This document shows, one piece after another, positions 692-12,088 of a DNA stretch of 64,000 bases. Every line of letters starts with the position of its first letter. Position 1 is the stretch's first letter. The stretch spans positions 177,998 to 241,997 of the forward strand of contig JAEPPZ010000003.1 of the NCBI GenBank assembly GCA_017640785.1, given 5' to 3'. The position numbers and the translations under genes were made by a program. The stretch comes from Balneola sp. (GTDB lineage: Bacteria; Bacteroidota; Rhodothermia; Balneolales; Balneolaceae). Below the pieces are notes generated by a model. It saw only the letters and a program-made list of their open reading frames with translations. It was not told the origin of the DNA and did not search any database.

Positions 692-721
692 ACTACTGAT
701 GATCCCACTTTTCAATTTTAT

Positions 722-785
722 TTAGATTTATTCTACATAAAGGTTGAGGACGTTCGAAAAAGTCCTTAACTTAGATTCGTTCTAA
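722..785. promoter_or_regulatory. Paired candidate operator motifs upstream of the metal-uptake cluster
   Basis: Two related 15-base motifs lie 49 bases apart (start to start) in the leader of the DUF4856 operon: TTAGATTTATTCTAC at 722-736 and TTAGATTCGTTCTAA at 771-785. The second is an inverted repeat with TTAGA and TCTAA arms and a 5-base spacer, and both are followed by an ATAAA run. Placement and symmetry suggest a repressor site. The downstream genes look iron-related and a DtxR-type regulator is encoded at 11432-12088, so a metal-dependent regulator is my inference. It is not demonstrated. Confidence 0.45.
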
Positions 786-819: not shown

Positions 820-2037
820 ATGAATCTATCAAAAAGTCTGCTGATCATTGCAGCATTTATTTTCACCATTTCTTGCGATACTAATAATACTAACGACGAG
901 ATCGCTACCCCTGAAACTTATGAATTTACCCGAAATGGAGAATCCACAGTTTCATTTTCAGGTCAAACTACACGTATAAAAATGTCAGGTGAATTAACTT
1001 CAGCCATGACAGATTTCGATAACACTACCAAAGAACTATTATTGGAGATGTTTAGAAATCAAACAGAAAATGGTGCTGATGCTAATCCATTTTCAGAAGC
1101 TGAATTAAACGCTGCCACAAAAAATATTAAAAGCAAAGTAGCTGCTTCAACAGACTTCTTTTCTACTAATACAGCTGTTAGTTCGGAAATTAAAACTCAG
1201 TTCGAAACATGGTTAACTGCTCAGGTTGATGAAGTATTTCCGAATGAAAATATTCAAGCTCAACCGGGTGTTGCCGGACAAATCGCTGACGGTTCATCTA
1301 CACGTTATGTAAGTGCCAAAGGATTTGAATACAATCAATTGGTAGCAAAAAGCCTGATTGGTGCACTTATGACTGATCAAATTCTTAATAATTATGTTAG
1401 CACCTCGGTTCTGGATGCAGGAACTAATATTGAAGACAACAACAATGGAATAACAGCCGAAGGTAAAACCTACACTAATATGGAGCATAAGTGGGATGAA
1501 GCTTTCGGATACCTGTATGGAAACTCTTCAAACACAGCAAACCCTAATTTAACAATTGGACAGGACGACAGTTTTTTAAATAAGTATTTAGGAAGAGTAG
1601 AAGGCGATGACGATTTCGCCGGTATTGCTCAGGATATTTTTGATGCTTTTGCATTAGGACGAGCGGCTATTGTTGAAGGAGATTATGAACTTAGAGACGA
1701 ACAAGCTGAAATATTAAGAGCTCAGATCTCGGCAATCATCGGTGTCAGAGCTGTTTATTATCTACAATCAGGAAAAACAGTACTAGAACAAGCTAATCCT
1801 GACTTTGGCACTGCTTTTCACGATCTTTCAGAAGCTTATGGTTTTGTATACAGTTTACAATTTACCAGACAGCCGGGAACGGGTCAGCCATATTTCACGA
1901 AAGCTGAAGTTGATGGTTTTATCTCCTTGCTGGAAGCCGGAAATGGTTTATGGGATGTAACTCCTCAAACTCTTCAAGATATTTCTGTTGACATAGCCTC
2001 AAAATTCAATTTCACAATTGAAGAAGCTTCAAACTAA
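820..2037 (+). CDS. DUF4856 family lipoprotein
   Basis: 405 residues. A lipoprotein signal (FTISC) places the lipidated Cys at residue 19, so it should be anchored in the outer or inner membrane facing the periplasm or surface. The rest is soluble, acidic and mostly helical. The YEFTRNGESTVSFSGQTTR segment after the linker matches what I know of DUF4856, a Bacteroidota family commonly found beside imelysin genes. Here it is the first gene of a cluster with imelysin, a gamma-carboxylase homologue and a TonB-dependent receptor. That context suggests a role in capture of iron or another metal or cofactor. The molecular function is unknown. The ATG at 820 has no obvious Shine-Dalgarno, only an A-rich leader as is usual in this group. 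Confidence 0.75.
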   Translation: MNLSKSLLIIAAFIFTISCDTNNTNDEIATPETYEFTRNGESTVSFSGQTTRIKMSGELTSAMTDFDNTTKELLLEMFRNQTENGADANPFSEAELNAATKNIKSKVAASTDFFSTNTAVSSEIKTQFETWLTAQVDEVFPNENIQAQPGVAGQIADGSSTRYVSAKGFEYNQLVAKSLIGALMTDQILNNYVSTSVLDAGTNIEDNNNGITAEGKTYTNMEHKWDEAFGYLYGNSSNTANPNLTIGQDDSFLNKYLGRVEGDDDFAGIAQDIFDAFALGRAAIVEGDYELRDEQAEILRAQISAIIGVRAVYYLQSGKTVLEQANPDFGTAFHDLSEAYGFVYSLQFTRQPGTGQPYFTKAEVDGFISLLEAGNGLWDVTPQTLQDISVDIASKFNFTIEEASN

Positions 2038-2088: not shown

Positions 2089-3201
2089 ATGAAACGTTAT
2101 ATCCTTCTTTTTTTATCAGTTTCTCTTCTAATTTTAAGTTGTACAGAAACGAATCCATCCGGACCTGATCCTGATGATTTTGATCGAAAAGCAATACTTG
2201 AAAACTGGGCTGATAATATCATTATTCCTGCTTTAACTGACTTCTCAGAAAAGACAGAATCCCTCAAAACTGCCGGTAATAATTTTGCAGAAAATCCCAA
2301 TCAACAAGCTTTAGAATCTCTTCGTGATCAATGGAAAGCCGGATACCTTGCTTTACAACATGTATCCATGTTTGAGACGTCTAAAACAATGGAAATTCGT
2401 TTCCGAAACAATCTCAACATTTACCCGGTCGATACTGCAGAAGTAAAAGAAAACATCAATCAGGGCAACTACAACCTGAAATTACCTTCTGAGATTGATC
2501 AACAGGGTTTTCCAACTCTTGATTATTTACTTTATGGACTGGCCGGCAACAATGCTGAAATACTCTCTTTTTATAACTCCGGAGAAAACTCTTCTGATTA
2601 CCGAAATTATGTAGTGGATTTGGTAACCAGAATAGACTCGCTTACCGATATAGTATTAAATGATTGGAACTCAGGATTCAGAGATGAATTTGTAAATAAC
2701 TCAGGTAACGGAGCCAATTCCTCTATCGACATGATGGTGAATGACTTTATCTTTTACTACGAAAAGAATCTGCGCGCAGGTAAGATCGGAATTCCAGCCG
2801 GTGTTTTTTCCGGAACCCCACTTCCTCAAAATGTAGAAGGCTTTTATAGCAAAGAATTCTCGAAAGAACTATTTCTGGAGTCGTTAACTGCCACTCAGAA
2901 CTTCTTTAACGGAAAACATTTTAATTCAGAAACTACTGGATTAAGTCTAAGTGATTATCTGGATTTTCTGAATACCATAAAAAATGGCACTGACCTGACT
3001 CAGCTTATCAATCAACAATTCGAAGAAAGTAGAGCAAAAGCTCAAAATCTGAATTCCAGTTTTGCTGATCAGGTTGAGATAAACAATTCTTTAATGCTGC
3101 AAACATACGATGAGCTCCAAAAAAACGTCATTCTCCTGAAAGTAGATATGCTTCAGGCATTAAATATTAATGTAGACTATGTGGATGCTGACGGTGATTG
3201 A
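2089..3201 (+). CDS. Imelysin-family (EfeO/IrpA-like) lipoprotein
   Basis: 370 residues with a lipobox (LILSC, Cys18). The body is an all-helical imelysin-type fold. The segment at 140-150 (GFPTLDYLLYG) is the Bacteroidota variant of the imelysin GxHxxE region: the His position is Pro and the Glu position is Asp, so the classic metal-binding motif is altered. Imelysin-like proteins are iron-regulated periplasmic or surface proteins implicated in iron uptake. It sits second in the cluster, 51 bases after the DUF4856 gene with a terminator-like hairpin between, and only 3 bases before the carboxylase homologue. I infer a substrate-capture partner for the downstream TonB-dependent receptor. The metal or ligand is unknown. 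Confidence 0.85.
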   Translation: MKRYILLFLSVSLLILSCTETNPSGPDPDDFDRKAILENWADNIIIPALTDFSEKTESLKTAGNNFAENPNQQALESLRDQWKAGYLALQHVSMFETSKTMEIRFRNNLNIYPVDTAEVKENINQGNYNLKLPSEIDQQGFPTLDYLLYGLAGNNAEILSFYNSGENSSDYRNYVVDLVTRIDSLTDIVLNDWNSGFRDEFVNNSGNGANSSIDMMVNDFIFYYEKNLRAGKIGIPAGVFSGTPLPQNVEGFYSKEFSKELFLESLTATQNFFNGKHFNSETTGLSLSDYLDFLNTIKNGTDLTQLINQQFEESRAKAQNLNSSFADQVEINNSLMLQTYDELQKNVILLKVDMLQALNINVDYVDADGD

Positions 3202-3204
3202 TCT

Positions 3205-4575
3205 TTGAGTACAACTTCAATTAGCACATATCTTAATTCCTACTCGAAAGCCGCTCCACTAGCGGTTTTTCGTGTTTTTTTCGGTTTGTTAATGCTCATA
3301 AGCATTGTACGGTTTGCGGTAAACGGCTGGATACAAAAACTATATATAGAGCCGGATTTCTTCTTTTCCTATTATGGATTTGATTGGGTTCAACCGCCCG
3401 GCGAATGGACCTATCTGATTTTTGCTGTTTGCGGGCTTTCTGCCATTTTTATTTCACTGGGTTTCAAGTACAGATTTGCTATCATTACTTTTTTCCTCAG
3501 TTTTACTTTTATAGAACTGATGGACAAAACCACCTATCTGAATCACTATTATTTCATCAGCATTCTAAGTTTTTTGATGATATTTCTGCCGGCAAATTCT
3601 TACTTCTCTGTTGATGCAGCCAGAAACCCAAAACTTAAAGCTGAATTTATTCCAAGCTGGACAATCGACGCTATTAAACTGCTTCTTTTTATTGTTTACT
3701 TCTATGCAGGACTAGCAAAACTAAATTCCGATTGGCTTTTTCAGGCAATGCCTTTAAAGATCTGGCTTCCAGCAAAATATTCCATTCCATTACTCGGCGA
3801 TCTGTTGCAACAATCCTGGGTGCATTTTGCTTTTGCATGGGGAGGCGCTCTTTATGATCTGTCTATCCCTTTTTTACTTCTGATCAAACGAACCAGAACC
3901 TTCGCTTTTGTACTTGTCGTTATCTTTCACATTCTAACCCGGATTTTATTTCCAATTGGAATGTTTCCTTACATCATGATCATAAGCGCTTTGATCTTTT
4001 TTGATTCCGGATTACATACCCGAATTCTTGATAGCATTTCCACAATCTTCAAAATAAATTTAGATGCTTTTAACAACTCAGAGCGATATTCATTTGAGAG
4101 CCCAATATCAAAGAAATTTAGTCTTAGTATTGTAGGGGTGTTCTTCCTTTTTCAACTTTTATTTCCATTTAGATATTTACTGTATCCCGGAGAATTGTTC
4201 TGGACTGAAGAGGGTTACAGATTCTCATGGCGAGTAATGCTTATTGAAAAAGCAGGATATGCAAATTTCAAAGTTGTAGATCCGGAGACGCAGAAAAGAT
4301 TTTACGTAGATAACACCAAATTTTTGACTCGCTTTCAGGAAAAACAGATGTCAACACAGCCTGATTTCATTCTTGAATATGCTCATCATCTGGAAGAATA
4401 TTATCAGAATCATGGAATCGAAAATCCCGAAATTTATGTTGAGAGTTTTGTTGCTCTTAATGGCCGAAGAAGCGCGCCGTACATTGATCCTAAAATCGAT
4501 CTCACAACAATTAAAAGAAATTTAAAATCAAAAAAATGGATACTTCCTTTCAACGATGAGATTAAAGGACTTTAG
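3205..4575 (+). CDS. Vitamin K-dependent gamma-carboxylase homologue (HTTM domain membrane protein)
   Basis: 456 residues. About seven membrane segments in the first ~325 residues are followed by a soluble C-terminal domain. The start must be TTG at 3205: the frame shares its phase with the imelysin stop two codons upstream, and the first in-frame ATG would delete the first membrane helix. Motifs match animal gamma-glutamyl carboxylase (GGCX): NH at 113-114 (catalytic Asn-His, as in NNHSYLY) and AGLAKLNSDW with Lys172 (as in AGVKKLDADW, the active-site Lys). The C-terminal half also follows the GGCX lumenal domain (FSWRVM; ENPEIYVESFVALNGR; YIDPKIDL). Such enzymes use reduced vitamin K, CO2 and O2 to carboxylate Glu. 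Bacterial relatives may carry out only quinol epoxidation or oxidation. In this cluster a neighbouring lipoprotein would be the obvious substrate, which is my inference. Confidence 0.85.
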   Translation: MSTTSISTYLNSYSKAAPLAVFRVFFGLLMLISIVRFAVNGWIQKLYIEPDFFFSYYGFDWVQPPGEWTYLIFAVCGLSAIFISLGFKYRFAIITFFLSFTFIELMDKTTYLNHYYFISILSFLMIFLPANSYFSVDAARNPKLKAEFIPSWTIDAIKLLLFIVYFYAGLAKLNSDWLFQAMPLKIWLPAKYSIPLLGDLLQQSWVHFAFAWGGALYDLSIPFLLLIKRTRTFAFVLVVIFHILTRILFPIGMFPYIMIISALIFFDSGLHTRILDSISTIFKINLDAFNNSERYSFESPISKKFSLSIVGVFFLFQLLFPFRYLLYPGELFWTEEGYRFSWRVMLIEKAGYANFKVVDPETQKRFYVDNTKFLTRFQEKQMSTQPDFILEYAHHLEEYYQNHGIENPEIYVESFVALNGRRSAPYIDPKIDLTTIKRNLKSKKWILPFNDEIKGL

Positions 4576-7093: not shown

Positions 7094-7525
7094 TTAGCTT
7101 GTTTTCATGTCTTCCAGCAAGCTGTTGTAACCTCTTTTCAGGTCATCAAAACCATCTTCTATATTTGCTGTAAGACGTTCCCAATTTTCTTTGGTAGCAT
7201 CTTCAAGGTCAGCAATTTCATTATGCAGCTCATCTTTTTCTTTTTTCAGCTTATCTAATGCTTTTCTAGTTTCTTCTTCTACTTTTTCAGAATCTTCTTT
7301 GACTTCTTTGTCGATATCATCAATTTTCTCGTTGATTTCCTGAATCTCATCTTCTGCTTCCGCAATAAACTGATTCTTTTTTTCATTAAAATCATTACCT
7401 ATCGCTTTTGCAGTATTTTCGATCTGATCGCCTGCTTTTTCGGCTTCTGTTTTTGATTTTTCTGAACATGCAGCAAAAGTTAATGCTACTAATGTGATCA
7501 TTAATAAAACTCTTGAGTTCTTCAT
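7094..7525 (-). CDS. Coiled-coil lipoprotein of unknown function
   Basis: 143 residues. Lipobox LTFAAC with Cys20. After the anchor the protein is almost entirely charged heptad-like helix (EIQEINEKIDDIDKEVKE, then KLKKEKDELHNEIADLEDA) and ends in an amphipathic helix. This resembles Lpp-like or periplasmic coiled-coil spacers without being an identifiable family. It stands alone: it converges on the TonB receptor operon through a shared terminator and is divergent from the PD40 lipoprotein gene. A periplasmic structural or envelope-stress role would fit but is not shown. Confidence 0.7.
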   Translation of the reverse strand: MKNSRVLLMITLVALTFAACSEKSKTEAEKAGDQIENTAKAIGNDFNEKKNQFIAEAEDEIQEINEKIDDIDKEVKEDSEKVEEETRKALDKLKKEKDELHNEIADLEDATKENWERLTANIEDGFDDLKRGYNSLLEDMKTS

Positions 7526-7663: not shown

Positions 7664-8722
7664 ATGAAGTTAATTTACCCGGTTCTTTTAACACTTTTAC
7701 TGCTAAACTGTACATCTGAAAAAAATGATGCTCTCAGATACGAAAAAGAAACACATCTAAAAAATATCAAACAGCTGACTTTTGGTGGAGATAACGCCGA
7801 AGCTTACTGGAGTTATGATAATACAAAATTGGTTTTTCAGGCTAATAATCCAGAGTGGGATACCGAATGTGATCAGATCTTTTATATGGATGCAGAAGAA
7901 AATGAACCCGGATTTGAAGCTCCGATCATAAGCACCGGACTAGGCAGAACTACTTGTTCATATTTCTTACCGGATGAAACCATTGTTTATGGCTCTACAC
8001 ATCTGGATGATATCGCCTGTCCTGAAGTTCCTGAACGAGGACCCGGCGGAGCTTATGTTTGGCCGATCTATGAAGGTTACGATATCTTCAGAGCCAATCT
8101 GGACGGTGAGATCATTGATACTCTAACCACTACACCCGGTTATGACGCTGAAGCAACTGTTTCTCCGGATGGAAGCAAAATTGTGTTCACTTCAATGAGA
8201 ACCGGAGACCTGGAATTATTTATTATGGACGTTGACGGATCAAATGTTGTTCAAATCACAGATGAACTTGGTTACGATGGCGGTGCTTTCTTTTCTCCGG
8301 ATGGAACAGAATTGATATTCAGAGCATCACGACCAAAGACAGAAGCCGAAGTTGAAAAGTACACTTCTCTTCTTGCTGAAGGATTGGTTGAACCTACAGA
8401 TATGGAATTATTCCTCGTAAATGTGGATGGAACCAACATGCGTCAGATTACAGATCTGGGTAATGCAAACTGGGCTCCTTTTTTCCATCCTTCCGGAGAA
8501 AAAATAATATTCTCATCTAATCATAATTCGACCAGAGGTTTTCCTTTTAATCTGTTTATGATCAATCCTGATGGAACCGGACTTGAACAAGTTACCTTTG
8601 ATGATACTTTCGATTCATTTCCTATGTTTTCCCATGATGGTAAGAAATTAGTTTTCTCATCAAACCGATTCAATGGCGGCGACCGATCAACAAATGTGTT
8701 TATAGCTGATTGGGTTGAATAG
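7664..8722 (+). CDS. PD40/TolB-like beta-propeller lipoprotein
   Basis: 352 residues. Lipobox LLLLNC with Cys16. The mature part is a series of PD40 (WD40-like) blades, each with the SPDGxxIVFxSxRxGxxELFxMxxDG pattern; clear copies start near residues 165, 205, 270 and 310 (VSPDGSKIVFTSMRTGD, FSPDGTELIFRASR, HPSGEKIIFSSNHN, FSHDGKKLVFSSNR). Such propellers, as in TolB, are periplasmic or surface interaction scaffolds. It is followed on the same strand by a TlpA-like redoxin, a barrel protein and another redoxin lipoprotein. I infer that it belongs to an envelope-associated complex. The partner is unknown. Confidence 0.85.
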   Translation: MKLIYPVLLTLLLLNCTSEKNDALRYEKETHLKNIKQLTFGGDNAEAYWSYDNTKLVFQANNPEWDTECDQIFYMDAEENEPGFEAPIISTGLGRTTCSYFLPDETIVYGSTHLDDIACPEVPERGPGGAYVWPIYEGYDIFRANLDGEIIDTLTTTPGYDAEATVSPDGSKIVFTSMRTGDLELFIMDVDGSNVVQITDELGYDGGAFFSPDGTELIFRASRPKTEAEVEKYTSLLAEGLVEPTDMELFLVNVDGTNMRQITDLGNANWAPFFHPSGEKIIFSSNHNSTRGFPFNLFMINPDGTGLEQVTFDDTFDSFPMFSHDGKKLVFSSNRFNGGDRSTNVFIADWVE

Positions 8723-11431: not shown

Positions 11432-12088
11432 CTACTTTTCTACCAGAAACACATCTTTTGCAACAGAATTGCCGATGGTGGTTTCTTTGTCTTCCAGTTT
11501 GATCTTCACAGGTCCATCAAACGGGGTTTTTTCCAAAATAGTAACTTGAACACCCGGAATAATTCCGCTTTTCTCCAGAAATCTCAACAACTCCGGATCC
11601 TGATCTCTCACTCTTCCAATTATGTAGGATTCATTTTCATCTGCATCAGTAATAGCCAACGATGCCATTTCAGGCACAACTCCTTCCTTTGATGGAATTG
11701 GGTCTCCGTGTGGATCGTGAGTAGGATCATTTAACAATTCAGCGATCTTATCTTCAAACTGCTCTGAAATGTGATGCTCCAGCTTTTCAGCTTCATCATG
11801 TACCTGATCCCATGAATACCCCATCATTTCTTTAAGGTATAACTCCAGTAATCTGTGATGACGAATAACCTCAAGAGCGATCTTCTCTCCCGCTTTTGTA
11901 AGTTCCGCTCCACGATAGGATTTATGATTGATAAGTTGAAGCTTAGCCAACTTCTTAAACATATTGGTTACTGAAGCAGAAGAAACAGAGAGCGATTCAG
12001 CTATATTATTTGTAGTTGCTACAACTCCATCTATTTCCAAAAGATAAATTGCTTTCAGATAATCCTCTACCGACTGGCTTAGACTCAT
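11432..12088 (-). CDS. DtxR-type metal-dependent transcriptional regulator
   Basis: 218 residues, the full length for the DtxR/MntR/IdeR class. An N-terminal winged helix (VEDYLKAIYLLEIDG, SVSSASVTNMFKKL, ~5-60) is followed by the metal-binding dimerisation domain (EVIRHHRLLELYLKEMMG; HDEAEKLEHHIS, ~72-110). A C-terminal FeoA/SH3-like domain starts near 145. It represses metal-uptake genes when loaded with Fe(II) or Mn(II). It is the last gene of a minus-strand run, 2 bases after a thioredoxin-like gene. The shared upstream region near 15303 carries a motif resembling those in front of the imelysin operon. Confidence 0.93.
   Translation of the reverse strand: MSLSQSVEDYLKAIYLLEIDGVVATTNNIAESLSVSSASVTNMFKKLAKLQLINHKSYRGAELTKAGEKIALEVIRHHRLLELYLKEMMGYSWDQVHDEAEKLEHHISEQFEDKIAELLNDPTHDPHGDPIPSKEGVVPEMASLAITDADENESYIIGRVRDQDPELLRFLEKSGIIPGVQVTILEKTPFDGPVKIKLEDKETTIGNSVAKDVFLVEK

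What the first reader, a model, noticed from the sequence alone, without database searches (positions are those of the whole stretch)
3205..4575. Full-length gamma-carboxylase homologue with catalytic motif inside a metal-uptake operon
The sequence shows Asn113-His114 and Lys172 in contexts matching the NNH and AGVKKLDADW active-site segments of animal vitamin K-dependent carboxylase, plus a collinear C-terminal domain. Established knowledge: GGCX couples vitamin K hydroquinone oxidation to Glu carboxylation, and a Leptospira homologue was reported to have altered activity. Inference: a menaquinol-using enzyme here could modify the neighbouring lipoproteins, or link quinol oxidation to metal capture.
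Basis: partly seen in the sequence, partly recalled or inferred. Interest (0 to 1): 0.82.

Follow-up and report, generated by a model that had tools for sequence, protein, structure and literature searches.

The report
Vitamin K carboxylase relative in iron operon
This bacterial gene encodes a close structural relative of the enzyme that uses vitamin K to activate our clotting factors; it keeps the vitamin K reaction site, has lost the part that grips clotting factors, and across the Bacteroidota it sits in an iron-starvation operon with two surface lipoproteins and an outer-membrane iron receptor, which suggests a role for this chemistry in iron capture that can be tested.

Summary
3205-4575 (TTG start, 456 aa) encodes a two-domain HTTM + VKGC-lumenal protein. 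It aligns end to end with human GGCX residues ~46-510 (26-28% identity; model Z 33, 3.0 A over 437 residues). Quinone-pocket and base residues (K218, N159, H160, W223, F286, F294, F299, G259) are identical here and invariant in 122 operon homologues. Corrections: it is not 'full-length' GGCX (PBD-2 and Arch are absent); K217 and N158 are not conserved (A171, L112); H404, R406 and R436 also differ. The operon is an iron operon: two Fur boxes, the two best in the 64 kb; Fur box in 67/68 operons tested; the Riemerella operon is Fur-controlled in published RNA-seq. Gene order DUF4856-imelysin-HTTM-TonB receptor is nearly fixed (109 of 140 loci). In Roseivirga it splits into DUF4856+HTTM and imelysin+receptor units, so DUF4856 is the likeliest partner. 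Most likely: a menaquinol-dependent enzyme acting on the DUF4856 lipoprotein, probably GGCX-like carboxylation. Quinol-linked redox in place of the usual imelysin-associated di-haem peroxidase is a close rival. Gla formation is not shown: DUF4856 acidic residues also persist without HTTM, and VKOR shows no association.

The parts
718..740 (+). Fur box 1 (TTATTTAGATTTATTCTACATAA)
   Evidence: 19/20 to the Riemerella-type box extended to 23 bp; best match in the whole 64 kb window; box type supported by EMSA in PMC5609570
767..789 (+). Fur box 2 (TAACTTAGATTCGTTCTAAATAA)
   Evidence: 17/20, second best in the window; next best elsewhere 15
820..2037 (+). DUF4856 lipoprotein (405 aa), likeliest partner or substrate
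   Evidence: PF16148 486 bits; AF2 pLDDT 93.9, mostly helical; conserved E170, E222, H223, D226, E227, H334, E338
2089..3201 (+). imelysin-like lipoprotein, IPPA type (GxHxxE replaced by GFPTLD; C-terminal DGD)
   Evidence: PF09375 77 bits; alignment; DGD end in 121/122 homologues and in Psychrobacter 3pf0
3205..4575 (+). HTTM / VKGC-lumenal protein (456 aa, TTG start), GGCX homologue
3541..3546 (+). codons of N113-H114 (= human N159-H160)
   Evidence: 122/122 invariant in operon homologues
3718..3720 (+). codon of K172 (= human K218, quinol base)
   Evidence: 122/122 invariant; human function from PMC12589487
4556..7033 (+). TonB-dependent receptor (825 aa) with CarboxypepD-like N-terminal domain; start overlaps the HTTM gene
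   Evidence: best general similarity TonB-siderophore/FecA models, below cut-off

Best explanation
The gene encodes a GGCX-fold membrane enzyme of a Bacteroidota lineage dedicated to iron uptake. When iron is short, Fur leaves its two boxes and the operon is read (inferred for this strain; shown for the Riemerella operon). The HTTM protein sits in the inner membrane with its active site and lumenal domain facing the periplasm (inferred from GGCX topology), binds menaquinol in the conserved hydrophobic tunnel, deprotonates it with K172 and reacts it with O2 to make a strong base (inferred from residue identity with GGCX). That base activates a carboxylate-bearing group held by N113, H114 and Y338 on the DUF4856 lipoprotein, most simply adding CO2 to a Glu, as that protein passes to the cell surface. 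The modified DUF4856 lipoprotein, with the IPPA-type imelysin, then binds Fe(III) at the surface and hands it to the TonB receptor (inferred). Substrate choice no longer depends on a propeptide: the PBD-2 lobe is missing and K217, which in human GGCX serves substrate binding but not catalysis, is alanine. Shown: family membership, active-site conservation, operon, Fur boxes, partner co-segregation. Inferred: quinol oxidation, carboxylation, the substrate and iron hand-over.
For: Fold: Z 33, 3.0 A, 437 residues against GGCX. Catalytic and pocket residues 122/122. MK-4 hydroquinone is the ligand seen in human GGCX, and K218 is the base while K217 affects substrate binding (PMC12589487). MenD present. 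Operon order DUF4856-imelysin-HTTM-TBDR in 109/140 loci exactly, most others being variants of it or second-lineage HTTMs outside it. DUF4856 and HTTM co-occur in 52 of 57 DUF4856 genomes (p 6e-38). In two Roseivirga genomes DUF4856+HTTM stand alone while imelysin+TBDR lie elsewhere. Fur boxes and published RNA-seq listing the same four genes under Fur. DUF4856 and imelysin are predicted lipoproteins; 101 of the 102 DUF4856 with a recognised lipobox have an acidic stretch after the Cys, the Bacteroidota surface-export type (the export rule is from general knowledge).
Against: No activity data. No GLA-like Glu cluster in DUF4856 or imelysin. H223, D226, E227 and E338 of DUF4856 are mostly kept in relatives from genomes without HTTM, so they need not be modification sites. 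Human Glu-site residues R436, H404 and R406 are not kept, and Y395 is Phe in 31/122. VKOR not associated (p 0.88). Imelysin systems elsewhere use a redox enzyme, not a carboxylase (PMC3143127).
Confidence: 0.38

Rival explanations
1. Quinol-linked redox partner. The HTTM protein uses menaquinol (with or without O2) to change the redox state or release of iron held by DUF4856/imelysin, filling the slot that di-haem peroxidase (DHOR/DUF1111) or EfeB fills beside imelysins elsewhere; no protein is carboxylated.
For: Imelysins are reported as almost always linked to an EfeB-like peroxidase (PMC3143127); the window operon has none, and its imelysin is IPPA-type, the kind found beside DHOR. In relative G025 the classical imelysin-DHOR-imelysin set exists while HTTM is a lone gene with its own Fur-box-like site. 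The quinol site is intact.
Against: N113/H114 and the lumenal domain, which hold the Glu substrate in GGCX, are retained. No haem, flavin or metal motif was recognised in the HTTM protein. DUF4856, not imelysin, co-segregates with HTTM in Roseivirga.
Confidence: 0.28
2. Small-molecule enzyme. HTTM acts on an organic ligand (ferric-carboxylate or siderophore) brought in by the FecA-like receptor, carboxylating or oxidising it to free the iron.
For: Receptor resembles TonB-siderophore/FecA models; the GGCX pocket binds carboxylates; the missing PBD-2 lobe leaves an open cavity.
Against: DUF4856+HTTM can be separated from the receptor (Roseivirga); receptor similarity is generic and below curated cut-offs.
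Confidence: 0.12
3. Assembly or anchoring factor. The protein no longer works as an enzyme and serves as a membrane chaperone or export factor for the lipoproteins.
For: Several substrate-side residues changed.
Against: Strict invariance of base and quinone-pocket residues across 122 sequences (p 3e-8) argues for chemistry.
Confidence: 0.08
4. Ordinary bystander: a generic HTTM protein that happens to lie beside iron genes.
For: HTTM genes are widespread and a second lineage lies outside this operon.
Against: Fixed order in more than 100 loci, own clade at 100/99 support, Fur boxes, translational overlap with the receptor gene.
Confidence: 0.02

Closest known systems
Human/animal gamma-glutamyl carboxylase (GGCX)
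   Same: Fold over residues ~46-510, K218 base, N159/H160, quinone pocket W223/F286/F294/F299/G259, Y395 (here Y338), W399
   Different: No PBD-2 or Arch; K217->A, N158->L, M401->V, H404->I, R406->K, R436->Q, no C99-C450 disulfide pair; no propeptide substrates known
Leptospira GGCX homologue (first-stage reader and general knowledge; existence and presumed HGT noted in PMC4555120)
   Same: Bacterial GGCX homologue reported to be off the carboxylation path (from memory, not checked)
   Different: Its sequence and context could not be fetched here. In L. interrogans Hardjo the iron-responsive imelysins are paired with a di-haem oxidoreductase, with no HTTM mentioned (PMC13066512)
Riemerella anatipestifer RAYM_09779-09794 (PMC5609570)
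   Same: TonB receptor, 'vitamin K-dependent gamma-carboxylase', imelysin and hypothetical protein, changed in the fur mutant; same operon by annotation and order
   Different: Listed in a table only; no function studied
EfeUOB / ICMP-DUF1111-IPPA imelysin systems
   Same: Fur-controlled imelysin with a partner enzyme and TonB receptor
   Different: Partner here is a quinone-type membrane enzyme, not a haem peroxidase, plus DUF4856
FEA1-related lipoprotein / phytotransferrin
   Same: Weak similarity of the DUF4856 proteins to NF038033 (E 9e-4 and 4e-5, far below cut-off)
   Different: Not a member by score; carbonate-dependent iron binding (PMC7676907) not testable here

Membership tests
HTTM / VKGC two-domain family (GGCX superfamily) | HTTM domain and VKGC lumenal domain in order | tested here: met
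   PF05090 278 bits, PF22777 202 bits
HTTM / VKGC two-domain family (GGCX superfamily) | GGCX fold | tested here: met
   Z 33, 3.0 A over 437 residues; next unrelated row Z 8.7
HTTM / VKGC two-domain family (GGCX superfamily) | Catalytic base and quinone pocket | tested here: met
   K172, N113, H114, W177, F241, F249, F254, G214; 122/122
Vertebrate-type propeptide-dependent gamma-carboxylase | Propeptide-binding lobe PBD-2 and Arch | tested here: not met
   Alignment ends near human residue 510 of 758
Vertebrate-type propeptide-dependent gamma-carboxylase | K217 (substrate binding), R436, N158 at the Gla-domain site | tested here: not met
   A171, Q381, L112
Vertebrate-type propeptide-dependent gamma-carboxylase | Glu carboxylation | not testable with these tools
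   needs biochemistry
Vitamin K cycle | Linked VKOR to recycle epoxide | tested here: inconclusive
   One VKOR-domain match in the genome, in a 541-aa frame on another contig; no co-occurrence in 394 genomes; other reductases possible
Imelysin iron-uptake systems (EfeUOB/ICMP type) | M75 imelysin | tested here: met
   PF09375 77 bits
Imelysin iron-uptake systems (EfeUOB/ICMP type) | EfeB/DHOR peroxidase in the operon | tested here: not met
   None in the operon; the one DHOR of the genome is on another contig
Fur regulon | Fur box upstream | tested here: met
   718-740 and 767-789; binding in this strain not tested
FEA1/phytotransferrin | NF038033 curated score | tested here: not met
   18 and 22.7 bits against 250

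The most novel reading that the evidence does not exclude
A Fur-controlled, menaquinol-dependent protein carboxylase that installs malonyl-type ligands on surface iron-binding lipoproteins, so that one bacterial role of vitamin K carboxylation chemistry is iron capture.
Probability: 0.25. Interest if true: 0.92.

Novelty: new variant of a known kind. Interest (0 to 1): 0.62.

Why it matters
The role of bacterial GGCX homologues has been open since they were noticed. This work ties one large lineage to a single nearly fixed operon under iron control, names the likely partner (DUF4856), and shows that the quinol machinery is kept while the clotting-factor grip is gone. The open question becomes a set of simple deletions and mass-spectrometry runs, and it bears on how vitamin K carboxylation arose.

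Tried and rejected
(1) Gla-type Glu clusters in partners: none; only isolated conserved Glu. (2) DUF4856 Glu conservation depending on HTTM: no clear dependence in five relatives without HTTM; E170 and E222 vary there, but the numbers are too small. (3) Co-variation of Y338/F338 with DUF4856 acidic residues: none. (4) DUF4856 as an imelysin-like or solved fold: profile comparison, PDB sequence search and Foldseek/VIA gave nothing convincing; not listed does not mean excluded. (5) DUF4856 as FEA1: below cut-off. (6) VKOR as dedicated recycler: no association. (7) Placing human GGCX among bacterial lineages: branch too long. (8) Viral contigs: no relative found. (9) Literature: one table mention of the operon; no paper holding 'DUF4856' or 'HTTM domain' with iron. 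The original Leptospira biochemistry paper was not found in the library.

Full report
What is there. The window is part of a 3.39-Mb genome; its closest named hits with the extra PD40 gene are Balneolaceae. ORF 3205-4575 opens with TTG three bases after the imelysin stop and ends inside the receptor gene. The next in-frame Met lies about 30 residues in, within the first predicted membrane helix, so the TTG start is the sensible one. Pfam gives HTTM (278 bits) and the VKGC lumenal domain (202 bits) with nothing else. The only significant solved relatives are human GGCX chains (2e-46).

Active site. I took the human sequence from the alignment and checked its numbering against 22 published residues. 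The window has N113, H114 and K172 for N159, H160 and K218, and W177, G214, F241, F249, F254, Y338, S341 and W342 for W223, G259, F286, F294, F299, Y395, S398 and W399. In 122 operon homologues the base, the N-H pair and the pocket aromatics never change; eight of eight fall among 55 invariant columns (p 3e-8). Human structures assign K218 as the base, K217 to substrate binding, and show MK-4 hydroquinone bound (PMC12589487). K217 is alanine in all 122, and R436, N158, M401, H404 and R406 differ, as does the C99-C450 disulfide pair. The predicted model superposes on GGCX residues ~46-510 with Z about 33 and 3.0 A. Residues 324-346, which carry Y338 and W342, are poorly predicted, so distances there are not claimed. 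PBD-2 and the Arch are simply missing.

Operon. HMMs made from the four window proteins and relatives were run on 140 loci (most of them found through the HTTM protein, so the sample favours close relatives): 109 show DUF4856-imelysin-HTTM-receptor in exactly this order; 17 have HTTM alone. In some divergent loci scored 'no DUF4856' (L085, L098) or scored very weakly (L086, L097) a 356-389 aa putative lipoprotein lies upstream of the imelysin, unrecognised by Pfam or NCBIfam where tested. The operon lineage is one clade (100/99), apart from a second HTTM lineage with other neighbours. Across 394 genomes of the phylum HTTM occurs in 81, DUF4856 in 57, both in 52.

Iron control. The Fur box described in Riemerella with EMSA support (PMC5609570) is found upstream of DUF4856 in 67 of 68 operons at 16/20 or better, against a shuffled maximum of 16. 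In the 64-kb window the two best matches are the two in front of this operon. The Riemerella RNA-seq table lists receptor, 'vitamin K-dependent gamma-carboxylase', imelysin and a hypothetical protein as changed in the fur mutant.

Who is the partner. Two Roseivirga genomes have DUF4856+HTTM as a two-gene unit, with imelysin+receptor elsewhere (one of these second units with its own DUF4856 and no HTTM); L131 and both second units carry clear Fur boxes, L121 only a weak one. This points to DUF4856 as the closest functional partner of HTTM. DUF4856 is predicted with high confidence as a mostly helical protein (pLDDT 93.9) without a convincing solved relative. Its conserved E170, E222, H223, D226, E227, H334 and E338 look like a metal site; this is inference. 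Most are kept in DUF4856 proteins of genomes without HTTM, so they are not evidence of Gla.

The imelysin is of the IPPA type: the GxHxxE motif has lost His, and the chain ends in DGD in 121 of 122, as in Psychrobacter 3pf0. Xu et al. state that imelysins are almost always linked to an EfeB-like peroxidase (PMC3143127). Here no peroxidase is in the operon; the only DHOR of the genome is on another contig and the operon imelysin is the only one. In relative G025 the classical imelysin-DHOR-imelysin set is present, and HTTM is a lone gene with a Fur-box-like site. This is the main support for the redox rival.

Quinone side. MenD is present, so menaquinone is expected. The one VKOR match lies in a 541-aa frame on another contig; the region next to it reads like a thioredoxin-type domain and a small peptide gene (my reading). 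VKOR and HTTM do not co-occur beyond chance (p 0.88).

Judgement. Family membership is close to certain. A role in iron uptake is very likely. Quinol-dependent chemistry is likely from strict active-site conservation. Carboxylation of DUF4856 is the simplest mechanism that uses every retained feature, but it is inference, and a quinol-linked redox role is nearly as good. I do not file it as a vertebrate-type gamma-carboxylase, because features of that type were tested and not met.

Noticed in passing
G000:C11:110218-110604 (L032): VKOR domain in a 541-aa frame, apparently with a thioredoxin-like part, next to a small Cys-containing peptide gene; looks like a peptide-maturation locus, unlinked to this operon.
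   Followed up: partly
L189 (G456) and L190 (G243): DUF4856 with a TonB receptor but no HTTM; followed by an unnamed multi-pass membrane protein (39% identical between the two) and an FAD amine-oxidase-like protein.
   Followed up: partly
L121/L204 and L131/L205 (Roseivirga): The operon split into DUF4856+HTTM and imelysin+receptor units, one with a second DUF4856 and a PepSY-flavodoxin reductase gene just upstream.
   Followed up: yes
L043/L192 (G025): HTTM of the operon lineage alone between PhoH and PEPCK genes, with a Fur-box-like site upstream (16/20).
   Followed up: yes
window 7664-8722: PD40/TolB-like lipoprotein downstream of the receptor; recurs beside the operon in several Balneolaceae.
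   Followed up: no
window 7094-7525: Small Glu/Lys-rich coiled-coil lipoprotein (sll1863-like) on the opposite strand after the operon.
   Followed up: no
window 11432-12088: DtxR/MntR-type metal regulator gene a few kb downstream.
   Followed up: no
L194 (G052), G098, G181, G222: HTTM genes with an in-frame stop or split frame, possibly decaying copies.
   Followed up: no
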